A stretch of DNA of 64,000 bases from Alphaproteobacteria bacterium (GTDB taxonomy: Bacteria > Pseudomonadota > Alphaproteobacteria > TMED109). The stretch's first letter is position 1; every line of letters starts with the position of its first letter. The notes under the pieces were generated by a model, which worked only from the letters and a program-made list of their open reading frames with translations, did no database searches and was not told the DNA's origin. The stretch is from positions 1 through 64,000 of the forward strand of contig JAJEGJ010000104.1 of NCBI GenBank assembly GCA_022819905.1. Direction: 5' to 3'. Below, piece after piece: positions 1 to 8,209 of this stretch. Position numbers and translations under genes: made by a program.

Positions 1-982
1 ACGCCGAGAGGTTGCGGCGTGGCCAGCTTCGATGACCCGAGCCGACGCACGACCACGGCTTGCACACATGACTGGAACCGCGCGACTCCTAGGGTACGCT
101 CGCCGGATGACGACCGGGTGCGGAGCCTTCTGGCCGTCACCATGTGCGTGACCCGTGAACTCTGCGCCGAATCCTGCCGGCAGTATGCACCGAGACTTTC
201 CTCCAGAACCTAGATACCGGGCTCGAAGGCCGGGGATCCCGGCGTCGGCGCCAGTGCCGCGCGGTTCCCGGCCAACTAGGTCTTCGCAGTGCCTCGAGCG
301 CAACCCAACACGGGGATCTGGGCGTGCTTGGCCAGTGCCGACCAAACCCAATCGGCGTGACAGGGGGGGGACTGATGTCCGTCGCCGCAGGGTACGAACG
401 ACCACGTCACCAGGCATCGTGAAAGGGTATGCACGGATGACTCCTGGCAGCGGTCCGTGCTTCCCAAAACCCGGTCGCCGGCACCGCCAGCAGGGGGGAT
501 GCCCCGGCAAGACCATTAATGTTATAAAGTAACATCTACGGAGACGGTAGCTCCCTCTCCGTCTTCGCAAAACAATCGGGAACCCGGCGCGGACCACCCT
601 TGCGTAGGGCTGCCTCACCCCAAGATCGGGAGGTCGGCGACTGCGTAACGGTGCGGTTCCGGCGGACTCGCGAGACAATGTTGCGACAAGGTGAAGCTGA
701 CCTGACAGATCCGCAAAGTACGATTGTCCGATGTTCGCGAGGTTCTGACCGCGCTCTCGTCCTCCGGGACCATCGATCCTTGACGGGACGGCAAACGAAT
801 GAGCGGCTGCTGTGGGAAGACCTTTCTGTCCCAAAGTCAAAGAGGTTGGCCAAATCGACGGAACGTGGCCGGGCTGGTCGCTGGAAACCTCGTAGAGCAG
901 CTTGTTGGCCCGTTCTGGCTAATTCCGGCTAATTCGTAACCGTCCGAAAAGTCCTTCCCAGAGTCTGGTCACTATCAGTCGT
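1..982. other. stretch without a recognisable gene
   Basis: No open frame here gives a protein with a plausible hydrophobic core, recognisable motif or convincing ribosome binding site. Translations on both strands are rich in Arg, Pro and Ser, as expected from non-coding GC-rich DNA. A run of eight G lies at 363-370. The stretch borders a decayed accessory region and may be degraded mobile DNA, but nothing in it can be assigned. Confidence 0.6.
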
Positions 983-1447
983 TCACCCGACATTGCTCTG
1001 ATCCGCGTACGCATAGTCCACCCAGATGTCGTGAAGGTGCTCAAAGTCTTTGTCCGTGCTCAATAGTGTGGCTTGGCTCACACAAGCCGACGCCGCAATC
1101 CAGATGTCGTTCTGCTTCATGCTGACGGCCGGAGTCGGCGGCGGCGGGAATCCCGTGACTGGCCTCCCGTGGGTCCACGCATCGATCAATGCGTACGACT
1201 GCAACACGAGCGGGGTGATGCCCAACGTCGGGAAGTTGCCCAATGCCTCTTCCAGAACACTTCGGCGTTTCGCTCCCCCCCCCAACTTTTCCGAGAGGGC
1301 CAGGAGCTCCCCCTGACAAATCACGGAGGTGAAAGACATCGCCTCGGTCGAGCCCAAGTCATGGTTTACGTGTACGGCATGAGCCCACCGGGCCTGGCGC
1401 ACAAATCCGAGCAGAACCCCGGTATCGAGCAGGAATCGCCGCGGCAT
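983..1447 (-). CDS. PIN-domain ribonuclease, probable toxin
   Basis: A 154-residue PIN-domain protein, expected to be a metal-dependent RNase acting as the toxin of a toxin-antitoxin pair. The acidic residues of the PIN active site are visible: D8 in FLLDTGVL, E47 in CQGELLAL, D114 in QNDIWIAA and D132/D134 in STDKDF. The start lies 7 bases after the stop of the large upstream gene, so the two are surely co-transcribed. A run of nine G on the coding strand (plus-strand C run 1275-1283) encodes part of KLGGGAKR and is a possible slippage site. RNase activity is known for the family; the toxin role is inferred from the pairing. Confidence 0.8.
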   Translation of the reverse strand: MPRRFLLDTGVLLGFVRQARWAHAVHVNHDLGSTEAMSFTSVICQGELLALSEKLGGGAKRRSVLEEALGNFPTLGITPLVLQSYALIDAWTHGRPVTGFPPPPTPAVSMKQNDIWIAASACVSQATLLSTDKDFEHLHDIWVDYAYADQSNVG

Positions 1448-1454
1448 TTGTGGT

Positions 1455-2396
1455 TCAGTCCAGTTCCGCCATCAGTTCGTCGATCGGCTCATCCCCTGGC
1501 CACGCACCCCACAATTGCTTGGGGTCCGAAGAAATCGTGCGTGCCGAGAGCTCCGGAAACAGTCCCGGGCTCGCAGCAGGCTTCGCCGTCGGTAGTTCCG
1601 CAAAAGCCTGGTCGCCGCTGGTGCTGGTGCTGATTTTTCGCGCTTCGATCAGTCTGGGTTCACCGCTGATCTTGAAATGCACGATGCCTTCGACGGTCGT
1701 TGGCTTCCCCCACAGCGGCCGCAACATTTCCGCCTCGAGACGCTCCGATTCAAGTCTCCCCAACAGTTGCTGCCCGGTGTCCAAGACAATCCGGAAGCGG
1801 GCCGCCGCGTGCTGGATCGCTTCCAGCTTGCCGCTCACAACGAAAGCTCTCGGCTTTGGAATGGTGTCCAGCCTTCTGTTGATCAATCCGCAGGTATTGC
1901 CGTCGAGTGCGAATCGTCCGCGCGCTGACCCGCGTGGAATCAGCTCATAGCGGGCCCCGGGCGTCGGGACCGTACTTCCGAGTTTAACGATGGCACCGAG
2001 GACGCCGCTGTCGAAGCGTTCGCCCCTGGCCCCGTCTTCCTTGGCCTCATGGATTGCGTAGGCAACGAGATCAAGAGCAGTGTCCTCAAGGTTGGGTGGT
2101 TCTCGCCAGAGATCCTGCTGCGCGAATTGCTCGCGTGCGGTTTCGCCGAGGCAAGGCGCCTCGATCTGAAGTACGGTGGAACCCGGCTCCAGCCCTGTCA
2201 GCACAAGATCGGCTGATGCCTTCAGCCATCCCGGCTGACGGCCGCGTGAGCGGCTCTCGCCGACCGCGAGCAGACTGGTAGCGCGCTCGGCAGCCTGGAC
2301 GAGGGCTTCCAAGACGCGTACGAGGGAAGCGGCCCTGATATGGCCTTCTGCTTCGTCAAGACCGGTCAGTCGAAACCGGTATCGTTGCGTTTTCAT
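1455..2396 (-). CDS. 313-residue partner of PIN toxin, putative large antitoxin
   Basis: A 313-residue cytoplasmic protein of unknown fold with no DNA-binding motif that I recognise. The start is supported by a strong GGGAGGA ribosome site about 7 bases upstream. The N-terminal half (to about residue 85) contains SLVRVLEALVQAAERA and GLEPGSTVLQIEAP. The C-terminal half has a segment that looks like a small beta-rich module (IVLDTGQQLLGRL, then TTVEGIVHFKISG). From memory, proteins of this layout often sit directly upstream of PIN-domain genes, which suggests an antitoxin far larger than the usual 70-90-residue VapB. That role is inference from gene order only. Confidence 0.6.
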   Translation of the reverse strand: MKTQRYRFRLTGLDEAEGHIRAASLVRVLEALVQAAERATSLLAVGESRSRGRQPGWLKASADLVLTGLEPGSTVLQIEAPCLGETAREQFAQQDLWREPPNLEDTALDLVAYAIHEAKEDGARGERFDSGVLGAIVKLGSTVPTPGARYELIPRGSARGRFALDGNTCGLINRRLDTIPKPRAFVVSGKLEAIQHAAARFRIVLDTGQQLLGRLESERLEAEMLRPLWGKPTTVEGIVHFKISGEPRLIEARKISTSTSGDQAFAELPTAKPAASPGLFPELSARTISSDPKQLWGAWPGDEPIDELMAELD

Positions 2397-2854
2397 GGCT
2401 AATCCTCCCGTCTGCTGTCTTGGCTCCGAAAGGACGAAGAATGGACTTGCGTCTGCCGCGAGGTAAGCCGTTTCCGTGGCATCCGGTCGAGGCGCTTGCG
2501 CACCTGGCGCTCAGCTTGAGCCTTGGCCGGTAGTGTAGCGGGGGGCGTCCTGCGCTGGCCCGCATCGGCGAGCGGTACATTGTAGGTCCGTAGGAATCCG
2601 TCTGCGCCCAATTGTGATTGAGGTGTAGCGGGACGGTAGTGTTGCGCTACGCCCCTGAGCGCGGAACTGGAGGTCGTTTCGACGCTATCGCTGTCAGGCT
2701 TCTTCCCGGCTGCGGTCGGTTTGGCACCACCAGAGACGGGCAAGCGATCCACGTGGCTGCCCCGTTGGAACTGTGGTACGACCGGGACTTTGCCTCGGCA
2801 AAAATTTACCCCGGCCGCGTGCCTGGGGCAGAGACGGTACCGGGGCATCCGACA
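2397..2854. other. gene-free flank left of the transposon
   Basis: About 460 bases between the divergent-facing toxin operon and the left transposon end. The long minus-strand open frame running through 2399-3139 is rejected because its 5' part is the antisense of a tRNA-like gene and the rest is Arg/Ser/Thr-rich without motif. The minus-strand promoter of the PIN operon must lie in this stretch; I see no clear boxes. Confidence 0.5.
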
Positions 2855-2862
2855 GGAAAATA
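2855..2862. repeat. 8-bp target site duplication, left copy
   Basis: GGAAAATA directly outside the left inverted repeat; the identical octamer follows the right inverted repeat at 5272-5279. Eight-base duplications are characteristic of the IS1595 family, and the intact pair indicates a single, fairly recent insertion. Confidence 0.92.
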
Positions 2863-2908
2863 GGCGATTATGTATCAGAGTAACCGGAACCCGGTCTGAT
2901 CGGGCGTC
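2863..2908 (+). repeat. left terminal inverted repeat
   Basis: 46 bases that match the reverse complement of 5226-5271 with two mismatches (offsets 29 and 40 from the tip). The tip begins GGCGATTATGTATCAGAG. These ends are the expected transposase binding and cleavage sites. Confidence 0.93.
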
Positions 2909-2946
2909 TTGCGGGAATCGCGGTCGATCCCCACATGAAGGTGAAG

Positions 2947-3019
2947 GTCCCCGTAGCTCAACTGGATAGAGCGCCTGAATCGCATCGGGAGGTTCCGGGT
3001 TCAAGTCCCGGCGGGGACC
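2947..3019 (+). tRNA. tRNA-like gene 1 with six-base anticodon loop
   Basis: Folds as a full cloverleaf: acceptor GTCCCCG/CGGGGAC, T8 A9, D stem GCTC/GAGC, D loop with GG, anticodon stem CCTGA (2974-2978) with TCGGG (2985-2989), five-base variable loop, T stem CCGGG/CCCGG and T loop TTCAAGT. The anticodon loop is ATCGCA (2979-2984), only six bases instead of seven, so the anticodon is ambiguous (CGC or TCG). No CCA is encoded. The acceptor helix continues outward by GAAG (2943-2946) with CTTC (3019-3022), giving 11 pairs. Bases 2950-2974 are identical to the chromosomal tRNA-Arg(CCG), so an arginine-tRNA origin is likely. It may be a true tRNA with altered decoding or a tRNA mimic. Confidence 0.75.
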
Positions 3020-3050
3020 TTCGACTCCACCGTACAACCTTCGGAAAGCA

Positions 3051-3080
3051 TTGTACATCTCGCCGTAAACGTTGTATGAT
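3051..3080 (+). promoter_or_regulatory. putative transposase promoter with inverted repeat
   Basis: TTGTAC (3051-3056) and TATGAT (3075-3080) are separated by 18 bases and resemble a sigma-70 promoter 60 bases before the transposase start. The -35 box is also the right arm of a GTACAA (3032-3037) / TTGTAC dyad that could bind a regulator. Confidence 0.5.
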
Positions 3081-3139
3081 TCCCACGTCAGAAACGAGAT
3101 AGAAGTCCACTGGACCACGAGAGGAACCGCATCAGACAC

Positions 3140-4114
3140 ATGACATTTACCGGCCCCGGCAAGTCAGATCGACAAGGAATCACCCTCACTCAGCTGTTCA
3201 AGATGTTCCCCGACGACGAGACCGCCAGGAGGTGGTTCGAGGAGCGGCTCTGGCCGAGCGGCCCCCACTGCCCGCGATGCGGCTCCAAGGACGTCGTGGA
3301 GATCAAGCACCCCACCATGACCCACCGCTGCCGGGACTGCCGGAAGGCGGGCAGCAAGGCCCTGTTCAGCGTGAAGGTCGGCAGCGTCATGGAGGGCTCG
3401 AAGCTGGGCTTCCAGACGTGGGCCGTCGCGATCTACCTGTTCACGACCTCGCTCAAGGGCGTGTCCTCGATGAAGCTGCACCGCGACCTCGGCATCACGC
3501 AGAGGGCCGCGTGGCACCTCGCCCACCGCCTGCGCCGGGCGTTCGAGGAGGGCGACATGGCCCGCTTCACCGGGCCGGTCGAGGTCGACGAGACCTACGT
3601 GGGCGGGCGGAAGCGCCGGAACGCCCCGAGCACGCAGAGAGGCTCCGTCGGTAAGGCCATCGTCGCCGGTGCCAAGGACAGGGCGACCGGCAGGGTCAAC
3701 GCACGCGTGATCGACAACGTGCGCAAGGAGACGCTCCAGGGGTTCGTGGGTGACCGCGTCGAGGTCGGGTCACTGGTCTACACCGACGACCTCCCCTCGT
3801 ACCGGGGGATGCCGTGGCACCACCACGAGGCCGTCAAGCACTCGGTCGGGGAGTACGTCCGCGATCAGGCCCACACGAACGGGATCGAGTCGTTCTGGTC
3901 AGTCCTGAAGCGCGCCTACGGCGGGACGTTCCACAAGATGTCGCACAAGCACCTGGACCGCTACGTGCAGGAGTTCTCCGGCAGGCACAACATCCGCGAG
4001 CTGAACACCGCGGACCAGATGAGCCAGCTGGCAGCGAGGATGCGCGGCAAGCGCCTCAAGTACGAGGACCTGACGGCGGACAACGGGCTGAAGTCCGGGG
4101 CTCGGAGTGCTTGA
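3140..4114 (+). CDS. IS1595-family (ISXO2-like) transposase
   Basis: A 324-residue DDE-type transposase. The N-terminal zinc ribbon has the two pairs CPRC and CRDC that are typical of this family. The catalytic core shows the first acid in VEVDETYVGGRKRR, the second in VYTDDLPSYRG, and the C-terminal NGIESFWSVLKRAYGG block with Asn and Glu where IS1595 proteins carry their third active-site residue. The length is normal and there is no frameshift, so the protein should be functional. It acts on the 46-bp ends of the surrounding element. GAGAGGAA lies about 13-20 bases before the ATG, a rather long spacing. Confidence 0.93.
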   Translation: MTFTGPGKSDRQGITLTQLFKMFPDDETARRWFEERLWPSGPHCPRCGSKDVVEIKHPTMTHRCRDCRKAGSKALFSVKVGSVMEGSKLGFQTWAVAIYLFTTSLKGVSSMKLHRDLGITQRAAWHLAHRLRRAFEEGDMARFTGPVEVDETYVGGRKRRNAPSTQRGSVGKAIVAGAKDRATGRVNARVIDNVRKETLQGFVGDRVEVGSLVYTDDLPSYRGMPWHHHEAVKHSVGEYVRDQAHTNGIESFWSVLKRAYGGTFHKMSHKHLDRYVQEFSGRHNIRELNTADQMSQLAARMRGKRLKYEDLTADNGLKSGARSA

Positions 4115-4158
4115 GGTCGGGATGCAAGTGACCTAAGATGACCGCGCAACGAAAGAGA

Positions 4159-4229
4159 ACCGCCGCGCCGGACTCAGGAAAATTCCTGAGCGCTCAGGGA
4201 CACGTGGCCTGAGTACCGACGCGGCGGCT
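4159..4229 (+). ncRNA. branched RNA or hairpin structure in the transposon
   Basis: An outer stem pairs 4160-4170 with 4216-4227 (CCGCCGCG with CGCGGCGG, one mismatch further in). Inside lie two hairpins: CTCAGGAA/TTCCTGAG (4173-4190) and CTCAGG/CCTGAG (4193-4213). The two inner arms share the same sequence, so alternative pairings across the junction are possible. It sits between the transposase stop and tRNA-like gene 2. It could be a terminator, a processing signal for the tRNA-like RNA, or a small RNA; there is no U tract for a simple intrinsic terminator. Confidence 0.5.
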
Positions 4230-4244
4230 TCTCGTCGGCACTCC

Positions 4245-4317
4245 CTCTCCGTAGCTCAGTTGAACAGAGCGTCCGGATCGCACCGGGAGGTCGCAGGTTT
4301 GAATCCTGTCGGAGAGT
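4245..4317 (+). tRNA. tRNA-like gene 2 with six-base anticodon loop
   Basis: Cloverleaf with acceptor CTCTCCG/CGGAGAG, D stem GCTC/GAGC, anticodon stem TCCGG (4272-4276) with CCGGG (4283-4287), variable loop AGGTC, T stem GCAGG/CCTGT and T loop TTTGAAT. The anticodon loop is again ATCGCA (4277-4282), identical to tRNA-like gene 1 although the stems differ. The D loop has GA where gene 1 has GG, and the T loop has T at the position pairing with it, so the 19-56 tertiary pair changes from G-C to A-T. The 15-48 pair changes from A-T to G-C. This covariation suggests the L-shaped fold is selected. A 9-bp inverted repeat (4232-4240 / 4317-4325) encloses the gene. No CCA is encoded. Confidence 0.7.
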
Positions 4318-4336
4318 GCCGACGAACTGCAGGATT

Positions 4337-4612
4337 CTATGAAGCCTTGCGCGCTGCGTACATCGCGCGTGACGCCTGCAGCGAGAACAGGGCGCCGACG
4401 CTGCCGCCGAGCAGGGCGGCATACTTCCCGGCAACGAGGCACTCGGCCGTGGACAGATCGGGGCAGACGTGGCCGTCTACGACCGCCATGACGATCAGCG
4501 CGCCCACGCCCGCGCCTAGCACCGCCGACAGCAGGATCCCGGCCACGGCCCTCGCCGCCTCGTTGACGACCAGCTGATCCCGCCCGGAGGGCTGGTTCTC
4601 TCCCCCGGCCAT
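4337..4612 (-). CDS. small membrane protein, transposon cargo
   Basis: A 91-residue protein with two predicted membrane segments (about residues 22-45 and 60-80) separated by a short loop with two Cys (HVCPDLSTAEC). No family is recognised. Its ATG overlaps the stop of the 50-residue gene upstream (TGATG), so the two are translationally coupled. The pair resembles small holin-like or plasmid membrane proteins in size and topology, but no function can be claimed. Confidence 0.65.
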   Translation of the reverse strand: MAGGENQPSGRDQLVVNEAARAVAGILLSAVLGAGVGALIVMAVVDGHVCPDLSTAECLVAGKYAALLGGSVGALFSLQASRAMYAARKAS

Positions 4613-4764
4613 CAGCTCTCCCCCTTCTTGATGAAGCAGGAGATGAGGACCCCGATCGGCCCCAGCAGGAAGCCGACGACGGCGGCGAGCTGGGTGCCCG
4701 CGATCTTGTAGGACAGGACTGCGCAGATCCCGTTGACGATCAGGGCGACGAGGAAGAATTCCAT
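4612..4764 (-). CDS. 50-residue membrane protein, transposon cargo
   Basis: A 50-residue hydrophobic protein starting MEFFLVALIVNGIC and ending CFIKKGES, with two short hydrophobic stretches split by SYKIAGTQ. GGAGTGAG lies upstream of the ATG. Its stop overlaps the start of the 91-residue membrane protein by one base. The ribosome site, coupling and consistent hydrophobicity support it as a real gene; its role is unknown. Confidence 0.6.
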   Translation of the reverse strand: MEFFLVALIVNGICAVLSYKIAGTQLAAVVGFLLGPIGVLISCFIKKGES

Positions 4765-5075
4765 TGGGGCTCACTCCGACGGGCGACGGTGCCGACCTCG
4801 GCAGAGCGCCGGGCCGTTGCTACGTCAACCAGTGAAGTTGAGTCCCCGCCTGTTCGCCCGCCAGCTCAAGGAGCTACCCGGAGCCGGACGCTAGGAGCTG
4901 TTCTATTCAGCGGGCGGCCCGACCGAGCGGGCCTGATTGACGTAGCGAGGTCAGGCTACCAGATCGTGAGGCGGGCGGACAGGAACCGACGGGCGTCAGG
5001 GGATCGAGGCCATGTACTGATGGCCAAAAGCATTGTAAGGTGGGTTCAGAAGCCGGGAGGGGACGCGAACTCGCC
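4765..5075. other. gene-free stretch inside the transposon
   Basis: About 310 bases between divergently oriented small genes. It must hold the promoters for the minus-strand membrane pair and for the 52-residue ORF. I see no clear boxes and no further gene. Confidence 0.45.
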
Positions 5076-5234
5076 ATGAACGACAAGCCAGTGAGACGCG
5101 AAGTCCGCGTGAAGCCTGACGACTACGAGCCGACCGAGGCGGAGATGAACGAGCCGATCCGAATCGACGCGACCCCGGATCAACTGGCTCGGATGCTTGG
5201 ACCCGCTCGGGTGGTCAAGGACCCCGACGCCTGA
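5076..5234 (+). CDS. 52-residue charged protein, transposon cargo
   Basis: A small, acidic and charged soluble protein beginning MNDKPVRREVRVKPDDYEP. The core EPIRIDATPDQLARML resembles short orphan proteins found widely in GC-rich bacteria, some of them antitoxin-like, but I cannot name the family with certainty. GGGAGGGG lies about 13 bases upstream. The last codons and the TGA stop fall inside the right terminal repeat, so the gene is bound to the element end. Confidence 0.6.
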   Translation: MNDKPVRREVRVKPDDYEPTEAEMNEPIRIDATPDQLARMLGPARVVKDPDA

Positions 5235-5271
5235 TCAGACCGAGTTCCGGTTACTCTGATACATAATCGCC
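5226..5271 (-). repeat. right terminal inverted repeat
   Basis: Reverse complement of 2863-2908 with two mismatches. It overlaps the 3' end of the 52-residue ORF and is followed at once by the second copy of the target octamer. Confidence 0.93.
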
Positions 5272-5279
5272 GGAAAATA
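5272..5279. repeat. 8-bp target site duplication, right copy
   Basis: GGAAAATA, identical to 2855-2862 on the other side of the transposon. Confidence 0.92.
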
Positions 5280-5492: not shown

Positions 5493-5726
5493 CTACGCAA
5501 GCCATTCATATAACTGTTCCCCTATCCAGTTGCCCAGCTTCTCCGCACCGAAAAACTGCGCACCCTTGTAGCCCGCAATGAAGGCGCCGGCCACCTTTCC
5601 ACCGCTTACGAACATGCCAGGCCAAACTTTGGCTTGCGCAGCGGGCGCCGCGATCAGCATCCCGGACAGAAGGACAGCGGCGAAACCCGCCGCCTTCATC
5701 TTGCGGTATACCGTCCTTCGCTTCAT
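5493..5726 (-). CDS. small exported glycine-rich peptide
   Basis: A 77-residue protein with a clear signal peptide: basic MKRRTVYRKMK, hydrophobic GFAAVLLSGMLIAAP and a likely cleavage after AAQA near residue 32. The mature part of about 45 residues contains glycine-spaced helices (SGGKVAGAFIAGYKGAQFFG) and an amphipathic end. An AGGGAGG ribosome site 9 bases before the ATG supports the start, although the frame stays open upstream into a primase remnant. The composition is reminiscent of class II bacteriocins or phage lysis peptides, but no family is recognised. Confidence 0.6.
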   Translation of the reverse strand: MKRRTVYRKMKAAGFAAVLLSGMLIAAPAAQAKVWPGMFVSGGKVAGAFIAGYKGAQFFGAEKLGNWIGEQLYEWLA

Positions 5727-6311
5727 CGCGAGTGCCTCCCTAGTTTGACCACGAATACTAAAATATTGGTCGATCTCTGCTCCCAAACAAGGACTCTGGA
5801 ACCAAACTTCGGCTTTTGTCCGCGCCCATTCTCCCCAATCTGCTTCCCTCGCTTGAGCCAATGCTCGCTCATGCGGTTCCAAACCGTCCCCCCATTGCCA
5901 TTTCCGATTGCCGACCTGTGCGTCCTCGGGTGTGCGGTACCAAAGGTGATAACCGCCCTCTCGGCGTGTCCAGGTGACGGTGAGGGGAGGGCCCAGCACA
6001 TTCTCGACCGCGTCGACGCCCTTCTGTCCGCCTTCGTCCACGTCGATACAGACAAGCTGCAAGGACGCTGGCAGCACGCCCACGAGCCCACCCTGGCCAG
6101 CATGATCGAGGACGTCGCGAAGTGACGCGGGGTTCGTCTGCCACCCCTTGCCCAATGGACGCTTTCGGGTGTCCGCAAGCACGAAATGGGCCCCGCGACT
6201 ATGCAGGTACTCGAGCGCCTGGTGAGCGGGTTTAAGGCCCGGATCGGGCGGAAACTGTGGCGCCCCACAGTTTCCGGCGTTTTCGGCCTTCTGACAAATT
6301 CCGCTAAGCGG
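5727..6311 (-). pseudogene. primase-polymerase N-terminal domain remnant
   Basis: The frame encodes HSRGAHFVLADTRKRPLGKG, then VCIDVDEGG and GGYHLWYRTPED, which match the bifunctional primase/polymerase (Prim-Pol) domain found in plasmid and phage replication proteins. The catalytic DVD motif is present. No start codon with a ribosome site is seen at the upstream end near the tRNA, the helicase part is absent, and the frame runs without a stop into the small exported peptide gene. This looks like a deletion relic of a mobile element that integrated beside the tRNA-Arg. Confidence 0.6.
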
Positions 6312-6322
6312 TTGATTGTTTA

Positions 6323-6399
<77 letters not shown>

Positions 6400-6816: not shown

Positions 6817-7054
6817 GGTCTTGGCTGAAGATTGCACGGATGCCGTCAGTGGTGGCGTGATCGGGAACCCATCACGGTCGGGTTGTCCGGCCATGCGGAC
6901 AGGTGGCAGCAGGATAGCGAATCGCCGTGGGAGCGGGGCAATGGGTGCGGCATCCGGTCCCGTTGCGCGCCTGAGGCAGCAGGTGCGCACGCAGGCTGCA
7001 GTACTGGCATCCCGGTTCCCGGCCCAAGTGCTCGCCGACAGACGCAGCGAGCGG

Positions 7055-8209
7055 TCAGCCGTTGCCGATGCGCCGGTACACGAACTCCGGAATCTCGCCG
7101 CCGGCCTCGCCAATGGGCATTTCCAGCACGTGCCGCTGCGGAGCGAACTCGCAGGCGGGGTCAGTCGTATCGGGATCCCCGGTCAGGGCGAACGCCTGGC
7201 ATCGGCAGCCGCCCCAATCGATCTCGCGCCGATCGCAACTGCGGCACGGCTCCGGCATCCAGTCGGTGCCGCGGAACCGGTTGAAGGCGCTCGAGTGTTC
7301 CCAGATCCAGGCCAGCGGACGTTCGGTCACATTCTCGAACTCTAGGAAGTCCAGCGATTCCGCCGCGTGGCAGGGCAGCACCTTGCCGGCAGGGGTGATG
7401 TTGAGGAACTGGCGGCCCCAGCCGCCCATGCAGGACTTCGGTCGGCGCGCGTAGTAGTCGGGGACCACGTAATCGATCGCCAGGATCCCCTTGAGGCGGA
7501 CCCGGGCCTCTTCGACGATCCGGGTCGCCTCATCGAGCTGGTCCCGGGTCGGAAGGAACGCCTGCCGGTTCTTGAGCGCCCATCCGTAGTACTGCACCTG
7601 GGCCACCTCGAGCCGTTCCGCGTCGAGTTCCACGGCCATCGCGATCATGTCTTCGAGGTGATGCAGGTTCTGGCGGTGCATCACGGCGTTGACGGTGAGC
7701 GGCAAGTCGGCGGCCCGAACCATGCGGGCAGCTTCCTGTTTCTTGGCATGTCCGCGGAACCCCGCGATGCGGTCCGCGTTCTCGGACTCCGTGTCCTGGA
7801 ACGAGACCTGGACGTGATCGAGGCCCGCCTCCCGCAGCCGGTCGAGCCGGGCCGGGGTCAGCAACACGCCGGAGGTGATGAGATTGGTGTAGAGCCCGGC
7901 CTTGGAGGCGTGCTCGACCATCTCTTCCAGATCCTTCCGGACGGTCGGCTCGCCGCCCGAGAAATGCGCCTGCAGGATCCCCATGTCCACGGCCTGCGAG
8001 AGGACGCTCTTCCAGGCGTCGGTGTCGATCTCGCGCGATGCGCGCTCCAGTTCGACCGGGTTGGAGCAGTACGGACACTGGAGCGGGCAGCGATGGGTCA
8101 GTTCACAAAGAACAGCGTAGGGAATCAGCCGATTGCGGGAATCCGAGGTTCCGGTTGCCGCGGCGCATTCGGTTTGCGCGTTCGCGGGGGCTTCAGCTTG
8201 GTCAATCAT
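7055..8209 (-). CDS. pqqE: PqqA peptide cyclase PqqE (radical SAM)
   Basis: A 384-residue radical SAM enzyme that joins the Glu and Tyr side chains of PqqA at the first step of pyrroloquinoline quinone synthesis. The cluster-binding motif CPLQCPYC (Cys 41, 45, 48) and the GGEPTVRKD element are clear. The C-terminal SPASM region has SCMGG, PCHAAESL and CRSCDRREIDWGGCRCQA, giving Cys ligands for auxiliary iron-sulfur clusters. The ATG overlaps the pqqD stop by four bases. The length is normal. Confidence 0.97.
   Translation of the reverse strand: MIDQAEAPANAQTECAAATGTSDSRNRLIPYAVLCELTHRCPLQCPYCSNPVELERASREIDTDAWKSVLSQAVDMGILQAHFSGGEPTVRKDLEEMVEHASKAGLYTNLITSGVLLTPARLDRLREAGLDHVQVSFQDTESENADRIAGFRGHAKKQEAARMVRAADLPLTVNAVMHRQNLHHLEDMIAMAVELDAERLEVAQVQYYGWALKNRQAFLPTRDQLDEATRIVEEARVRLKGILAIDYVVPDYYARRPKSCMGGWGRQFLNITPAGKVLPCHAAESLDFLEFENVTERPLAWIWEHSSAFNRFRGTDWMPEPCRSCDRREIDWGGCRCQAFALTGDPDTTDPACEFAPQRHVLEMPIGEAGGEIPEFVYRRIGNG

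What the first reader, a model, noticed from the sequence alone, without database searches (positions are those of the whole stretch)
2947..4317. Two tRNA-like genes with six-base anticodon loops carried by an IS1595 transposon
Seen in sequence: the element carries two full cloverleaves, one before and one after the transposase. Both have the six-base anticodon loop ATCGCA on different stems. The 19-56 tertiary pair is G-C in one and A-T in the other, and 15-48 is A-T in one and G-C in the other, so the L-shaped fold seems selected. Both acceptor stems are extended by flanking complementarity, and the first shares 25 bases with tRNA-Arg(CCG). Known: tRNA loop-size changes alter decoding. Inference: these may be mobile tRNAs with altered decoding, or tRNA mimics acting in transposition or regulation; their identical loops argue against random decay.
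Basis: partly seen in the sequence, partly recalled or inferred. Interest (0 to 1): 0.9.

Follow-up and report, generated by a model that had tools for sequence, protein, structure and literature searches.

The report
Altered tRNA-like genes riding a transposon
A small bacterial jumping gene carries two altered copies of the transfer RNA for arginine that keep the full tRNA shape but have lost one base of the decoding loop, and a related jumping gene in a sister species carries another odd tRNA in the same place, so tRNA-like cargo recurs there although its purpose is untested.

Summary
Both sequences are complete cloverleaves (Rfam tRNA, 50.6 and 47.0 bits) with the same six-base loop ATCGCA. 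I found the element's true ends: 46-bp inverted repeats (2863-2908, 5226-5271) flanked by the 8-bp duplication GGAAAATA. Both tRNAs are therefore cargo inside a 2409-bp IS1595-family element. They derive from tRNA-Arg. An alignment places the missing base at wobble position 34; A20, C35 and G36 are kept. The two copies differ at 21 of 73 positions, yet all 21 pairs form, five through changes on both sides. Random mutation keeps all pairs in about 5 of a million trials. The fold was therefore kept while the copies diverged, but whether before or after capture is open.

The cargo is not a fixed part of IS1595: 36 relatives (61% amino-acid identity or less) include only one other with a tRNA inside. 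That one (same genus, bounded by ATAGCTTA duplications) carries a tRNA-Ile-like gene with an aberrant T-loop just behind the post-transposase hairpin, where T2 sits. I favour non-decoding tRNA mimics bracketing the transposase gene, perhaps as RNA-processing or insulation signals; neutral passengers are nearly as likely. In passing I found a strongly covarying RNA, absent from Rfam, that leads exported-protein cargo genes in these elements.

The parts
2855..2862 (.). left copy of the 8-bp target-site duplication GGAAAATA
   Evidence: identical to 5272-5279
2863..2908 (+). left terminal inverted repeat (46 bp, 96% complementary to the right one); outer GG-GATTAT shared with related elements
2947..3019 (+). 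T1, tRNA-Arg-derived cloverleaf with 6-nt loop ATCGCA (wobble base 34 missing), no encoded CCA; acceptor helix continued by 5 flanking pairs
3052..3080 (+). only sigma70-like promoter of the element, between T1 and the transposase gene (consensus match only)
3140..4114 (+). IS1595-family transposase, 324 aa (Zn ribbon and DDE domain)
4155..4233 (+). long hairpin just behind the transposase gene
4245..4317 (+). T2, second tRNA-Arg-derived cloverleaf, loop ATCGCA, A19-U56; flanking 12-nt inverted repeat 4232-4243 / 4314-4325
4337..4612 (-). cargo ORF, 91 aa, hydrophobic segment, no significant family
4612..4764 (-). cargo ORF, 50 aa, MEFFLVALIVNGICAVLSYK..., hydrophobic; start 47 nt behind the structured leader RNA
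4812..4948 (-). conserved structured leader RNA (not in Rfam), upstream of exported-protein cargo in related elements
5076..5234 (+). 52-aa ORF with relatives at the cargo side of several related elements
5226..5271 (-). right terminal inverted repeat
5272..5279 (.). right copy of the target-site duplication GGAAAATA

Best explanation
An IS1595-family element that carries two tRNA-Arg-derived, probably non-decoding tRNA mimics. Shown: both lie inside the TIR/TSD-bounded element, they bracket the transposase gene and its promoter in the same orientation, and every helix and the L-shape tertiary pairs are kept although 29% of positions differ. The shared anticodon loop lacks one base; alignment places the loss at position 34. 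Inferred: the loop base was lost in a common ancestor and the tRNA body was then kept because tRNA-recognising enzymes (RNase P first) still act on it. T1 would cut or insulate read-through transcripts entering from outside before they reach the transposase gene; the hairpin plus T2 would trim and end the transposase message and separate it from the cargo on the other side.
For: Element ends and 8-bp TSD. Cloverleaves with identical 6-nt loops. Pair retention with five two-sided changes; free mutation keeps all pairs in about 5e-6 of trials. The closest tRNAs in the same genome are tRNA-Arg (58 and 57 of 73 for T1; 55 and 54 for T2), and MAFFT places the gap at wobble base 34 with C35 and G36 kept. 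Stems extended by flanking pairing. T1 lies upstream of the only promoter match, T2 directly behind a hairpin. A same-genus element (L130 56-3210, TSD ATAGCTTA, 50% aa identity) has transposase, hairpin, then a tRNA-Ile-like gene (62.8 bits, T-loop ATCGACA) in the same order and orientation.
Against: No transcript data. All but one of the 36 related loci show no tRNA that can be placed inside the element, so the function is dispensable for IS1595. T1 and T2 have no relatives in 385 genomes of the class or in viral contigs, so selection inside the element cannot be tested by phylogeny. The pair retention could date from before capture. The extended T2 helix competes with the canonical acceptor stem.
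Confidence: 0.38

Rival explanations
1. Neutral passengers: two tRNA genes from an already odd tRNA-Arg family (phage- or plasmid-like) were captured with the cargo; the compensated differences arose before capture and the genes now drift.
For: IS1595 elements here carry very varied cargo. The tRNA-Ile-like gene of the sister element has a damaged T-loop. Two further degenerate tRNA-like sequences occur elsewhere in this genome at C40. T1/T2 are absent from all other elements examined.
Against: The shared loop must predate their divergence, yet all 21 pairs persist and the conserved tRNA positions persist apart from the concerted 19-56 swap in T2. No donor family was found in phages, plasmids or viral contigs.
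Confidence: 0.32
2. Trans-acting tRNAs: still charged by ArgRS (A20, C35, G36 kept) and used as decoys, as nuclease-resistant tRNAs in the way proposed for phage tRNAs, or for two-base decoding of CGN codons.
For: Arg-type D-loop and C35/G36 in both. Phage tRNAs with altered anticodon loops are proposed to escape anticodon nucleases (PMC10264068).
Against: No encoded CCA, base 34 missing, discriminator C or U; both stems tied into longer helices. No defence-related gene was detected among the three element proteins scanned.
Confidence: 0.2
3. Structural part of the transposition machinery, for example transposase or end-binding sites shaped as tRNAs.
For: They bracket the transposase gene.
Against: 13 of 15 TSD-bounded elements have no tRNA, and in most of them the left end lies only 73-107 bp from the transposase gene.
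Confidence: 0.04

Closest known systems
IS1595-family insertion sequences with passenger genes
   Same: IS1595 transposase domains, inverted repeats, 8-bp duplications, variable cargo
   Different: passengers here include tRNA-derived genes and a structured leader RNA; no paper on tRNA passengers was found in the held library
Pseudo-tRNA tRNAOther of Bacillus cereus (PMC3399842)
   Same: tRNA-like gene associated with foreign DNA, held not to work in translation
   Different: it flanks an island, is single and has a Trp anticodon; ours are paired, inside a transposon, and have a 6-nt loop
Phage tRNAs with altered anticodon loops (PMC10264068)
   Same: mobile-element tRNAs with changes concentrated in the anticodon loop
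   Different: phage tRNAs are thought to decode; ours lack base 34
Host tRNA-Arg(ACG) and tRNA-Arg(CCG)
   Same: closest sequences of T1, A20 and C35-G36, identical 25-nt stretch with CCG
   Different: 7-nt loop, encoded CCA, ordinary acceptor stem

Membership tests
IS1595 family | Transposase with the IS1595-type DDE domain and zinc ribbon | tested here: met
   PF12762 125.7 bits, PF12760 39.7 bits
IS1595 family | Terminal inverted repeats with a direct repeat of 8 bp (value from general knowledge of the family) | tested here: met
   46-bp repeats and GGAAAATA; 14 relatives also show 8-bp repeats
tRNA (RF00005) | Cloverleaf fold above the gathering score | tested here: met
   50.6 and 47.0 bits against 29
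tRNA (RF00005) | Seven-base anticodon loop with a three-base anticodon | tested here: not met
   6-nt loop in both; base 34 absent in the alignment
tRNA of this host | Encoded 3' CCA | tested here: not met
   nearly all host tRNAs end in CCA, T1 and T2 do not
Functional tRNA | Expression, processing and aminoacylation | not testable with these tools
   no RNA data available
Pseudo-tRNA of the tRNAOther type | Expressed but excluded from translation | not testable with these tools
   only the sequence was available; PMC3399842 used for comparison

The most novel reading that the evidence does not exclude
IS1595 elements of this genus recruit tRNA-derived, non-decoding RNAs as functional parts, either as cis processing signals around the transposase gene or as trans-acting Arg-tRNA mimics, giving a class of transposon-borne tRNA mimics kept for their shape and not for decoding.
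Probability: 0.3. Interest if true: 0.8.

Novelty: new variant of a known kind. Interest (0 to 1): 0.6.

Why it matters
Cargo-carrying insertion sequences are usually described with protein passengers. Here precisely bounded elements carry tRNA-derived genes (two cases) and a structured leader RNA (seven bounded elements). If the tRNA-likes are expressed and processed, a minimal transposon uses the host's tRNA enzymes without using translation, which can be tested directly with RNase P and ArgRS assays.

Tried and rejected
Looked for the same six-base-loop tRNA in viral contigs (none), in 28 genomes of the family and 385 of the class (only this element), and in phage and plasmid records (the four hits inspected were ordinary 7-base-loop tRNAs). 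TIR-core and transposase searches of viral contigs found nothing. Considered that the tRNAs merely flank the IS: rejected by the TIR and TSD outside them. Considered att-type duplication of a host tRNA by an integrase: rejected, because the copies differ at 21 of 73 positions and no integrase was seen in the element. Considered a 4-bp stem with an 8-nt loop: not favoured, since pair 31-39 changes from A-T to G-C in concert. The leader RNA was first read on the wrong strand; the minus strand gives the better covarying fold and lies in front of ORFs.

Full report
WHAT IS THERE. The two cloverleaves are real: Infernal scores 50.6 and 47.0 bits against a gathering score of 29, and ARAGORN finds both. 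Each has a 5-bp anticodon stem closed by the same six-base loop ATCGCA. T1 is 2947-3019 and T2 is 4245-4317, both on the + strand, on either side of an intact IS1595 transposase (3140-4114; PF12762 and PF12760).

ELEMENT ENDS. Inverted repeats of 46 bp (96%) lie at 2863-2908 and 5226-5271, directly flanked by the 8-bp direct repeat GGAAAATA. The outer sequence GGCGATTAT matches the ends of related elements (GGGGATTAT, GGGAATTAT). The element is therefore 2409 bp long, and T1, T2, small ORFs and a structured RNA are all inside it. The host tRNA-Arg(CCG) at 6326-6399 is outside.

CONSTRAINT. T1 and T2 differ at 21 of 73 positions, 12 of them in paired sites, yet all 21 pairs form in both: five pairs changed on both sides and two on one side. 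Mutating T1 at 21 random sites keeps all pairs in about 5 per million trials; with only the paired changes and a transition bias, about 3 per 10,000. The tertiary pairs 15-48 and 19-56 also changed in concert. The fold was therefore kept while the copies diverged. Because no close relatives exist, I cannot say whether this happened in the element or before capture.

ORIGIN. Among the tRNAs found in the same genome, T1 is closest to Arg(ACG) and Arg(CCG) (58 and 57 of 73), and T2 to Arg(CCT) and Arg(CCG) (55 and 54 of 73). A free alignment puts the single gap at wobble base 34, keeping C35 and G36, and A20 is present in both. A20 and C35 are arginine identity elements in E. coli (general knowledge). 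Nearly all tRNAs of this genome encode CCA; T1 and T2 do not. The acceptor helices run on into the flanks.

RELATIVES. I examined 36 other transposase loci at 61% amino-acid identity or less. ARAGORN on all of them, and permissive Rfam scans of 23, found no tRNA that can be placed inside an element, with one exception. Three further loci (L040, L043, L045) have canonical tRNAs in the flanks. The exception is G211 contig 109 (L049/L130), an element of the same genus. It runs from 56 to 3210 with TSD ATAGCTTA and carries a tRNA-Ile(GAT)-like gene at 1322-1397, immediately behind the post-transposase hairpin, the place T2 takes in the window. Its T-loop reads ATCGACA instead of the usual TTCGANT. 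Its best match among the recovered tRNAs of that genome is 58 of 76, so it is not a recent copy of any of those. Fifteen elements could be bounded exactly, with 8-bp duplications; two of them carry tRNA-like cargo.

MECHANISM. Shown: position, orientation, fold, loop. Inferred: the RNAs are made and recognised by tRNA enzymes but cannot decode. T1 lies between the left end and the only promoter-like site (3052-3080), so transcripts from that promoter lack it and transcripts entering from outside would contain it. T2 follows a long hairpin at the end of the transposase gene. A processing or insulation role fits this layout best, at modest confidence. Neutral passengers are nearly as likely, and a trans-acting role is possible.

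KNOWN SYSTEMS. The element is an ordinary IS1595-family member by every feature tested. T1 and T2 fail the seven-base loop test for ordinary tRNAs. The nearest functional precedents are the B. cereus pseudo-tRNA (PMC3399842) and phage tRNAs with altered anticodon loops (PMC10264068). No paper in the held library was found that describes tRNA passengers in IS1595 elements or six-base anticodon loops.

SIDE FINDING. Window 4812-4948 (minus strand) is a structured RNA shared by passenger regions of other IS1595 elements. A model built from six copies finds 22 matches in the seven genomes of the genus (the weakest, 29 bits, is doubtful), a few in other genera of the class, and one in a Latescibacterota element. 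Over 22 distinct sequences 93% of cells pair, 26 of 35 pairs change on both sides, and the covariation score is 0.581 against 0.178 in shuffles (0 of 500) and at most 0.111 when slid. That alignment is fitted to the model, but the long terminal stem was confirmed separately in the six founders. In 18 of 22 cases it lies roughly 30-65 nt upstream of an ORF with a hydrophobic export signal, often with a lipobox, judged by eye. It lies inside seven of the fifteen exactly bounded elements, but also occurs where no IS1595 transposase was found, for example three copies in front of lipoprotein genes on contig C97. No Rfam family matches it.

HOST. G185 contig C54 has the same length as VXNK01000025.1 (a 'Rhodospirillaceae' MAG) and belongs to the same class as the window's genome, so the host is probably an uncultured alphaproteobacterium (inference).

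Noticed in passing
window 4812-4948 (minus strand); also L018 3061-3195, L029 3136-3272, L034 928-1065 (minus), L039 1788-1927, L049 2145-2280, L050 617-748: Conserved, strongly covarying structured RNA of about 135 nt, absent from Rfam, lying roughly 30-65 nt upstream of unrelated cargo genes whose products start with export signals or lipoboxes; present in 7 of 15 exactly bounded IS1595 elements and elsewhere in the genus. Possibly a cis-regulatory leader of exported cargo.
   Followed up: partly
L130 (G211 contig 109) 56-3210; tRNA at 1322-1397: Second TSD-bounded IS1595 element with a tRNA-Ile(GAT)-like gene directly behind the post-transposase hairpin; aberrant T-loop ATCGACA, CCA encoded.
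   Followed up: yes
L092 (G000 contig 40) about 6959-7027 and 7092-7164: Two more odd tRNA-like sequences near a contig end: one Ser(GCT)-like with a short variable loop, no CCA and 38.4 bits, and one with loop ACCAGAC lacking U33, seen by eye only.
   Followed up: no
window 5076-5234: 52-aa ORF (VRVKPDDYEPTEAEMNEPIRIDATPDQLARML) with relatives in the cargo of several related IS1595 elements, mostly near the end opposite the transposase; no Pfam family.
   Followed up: partly
window 5493-6182 (minus strand): Prim-Pol-like fragment (PF09250) just right of the element, suggesting that the insertion lies in an older mobile-element remnant.
   Followed up: no
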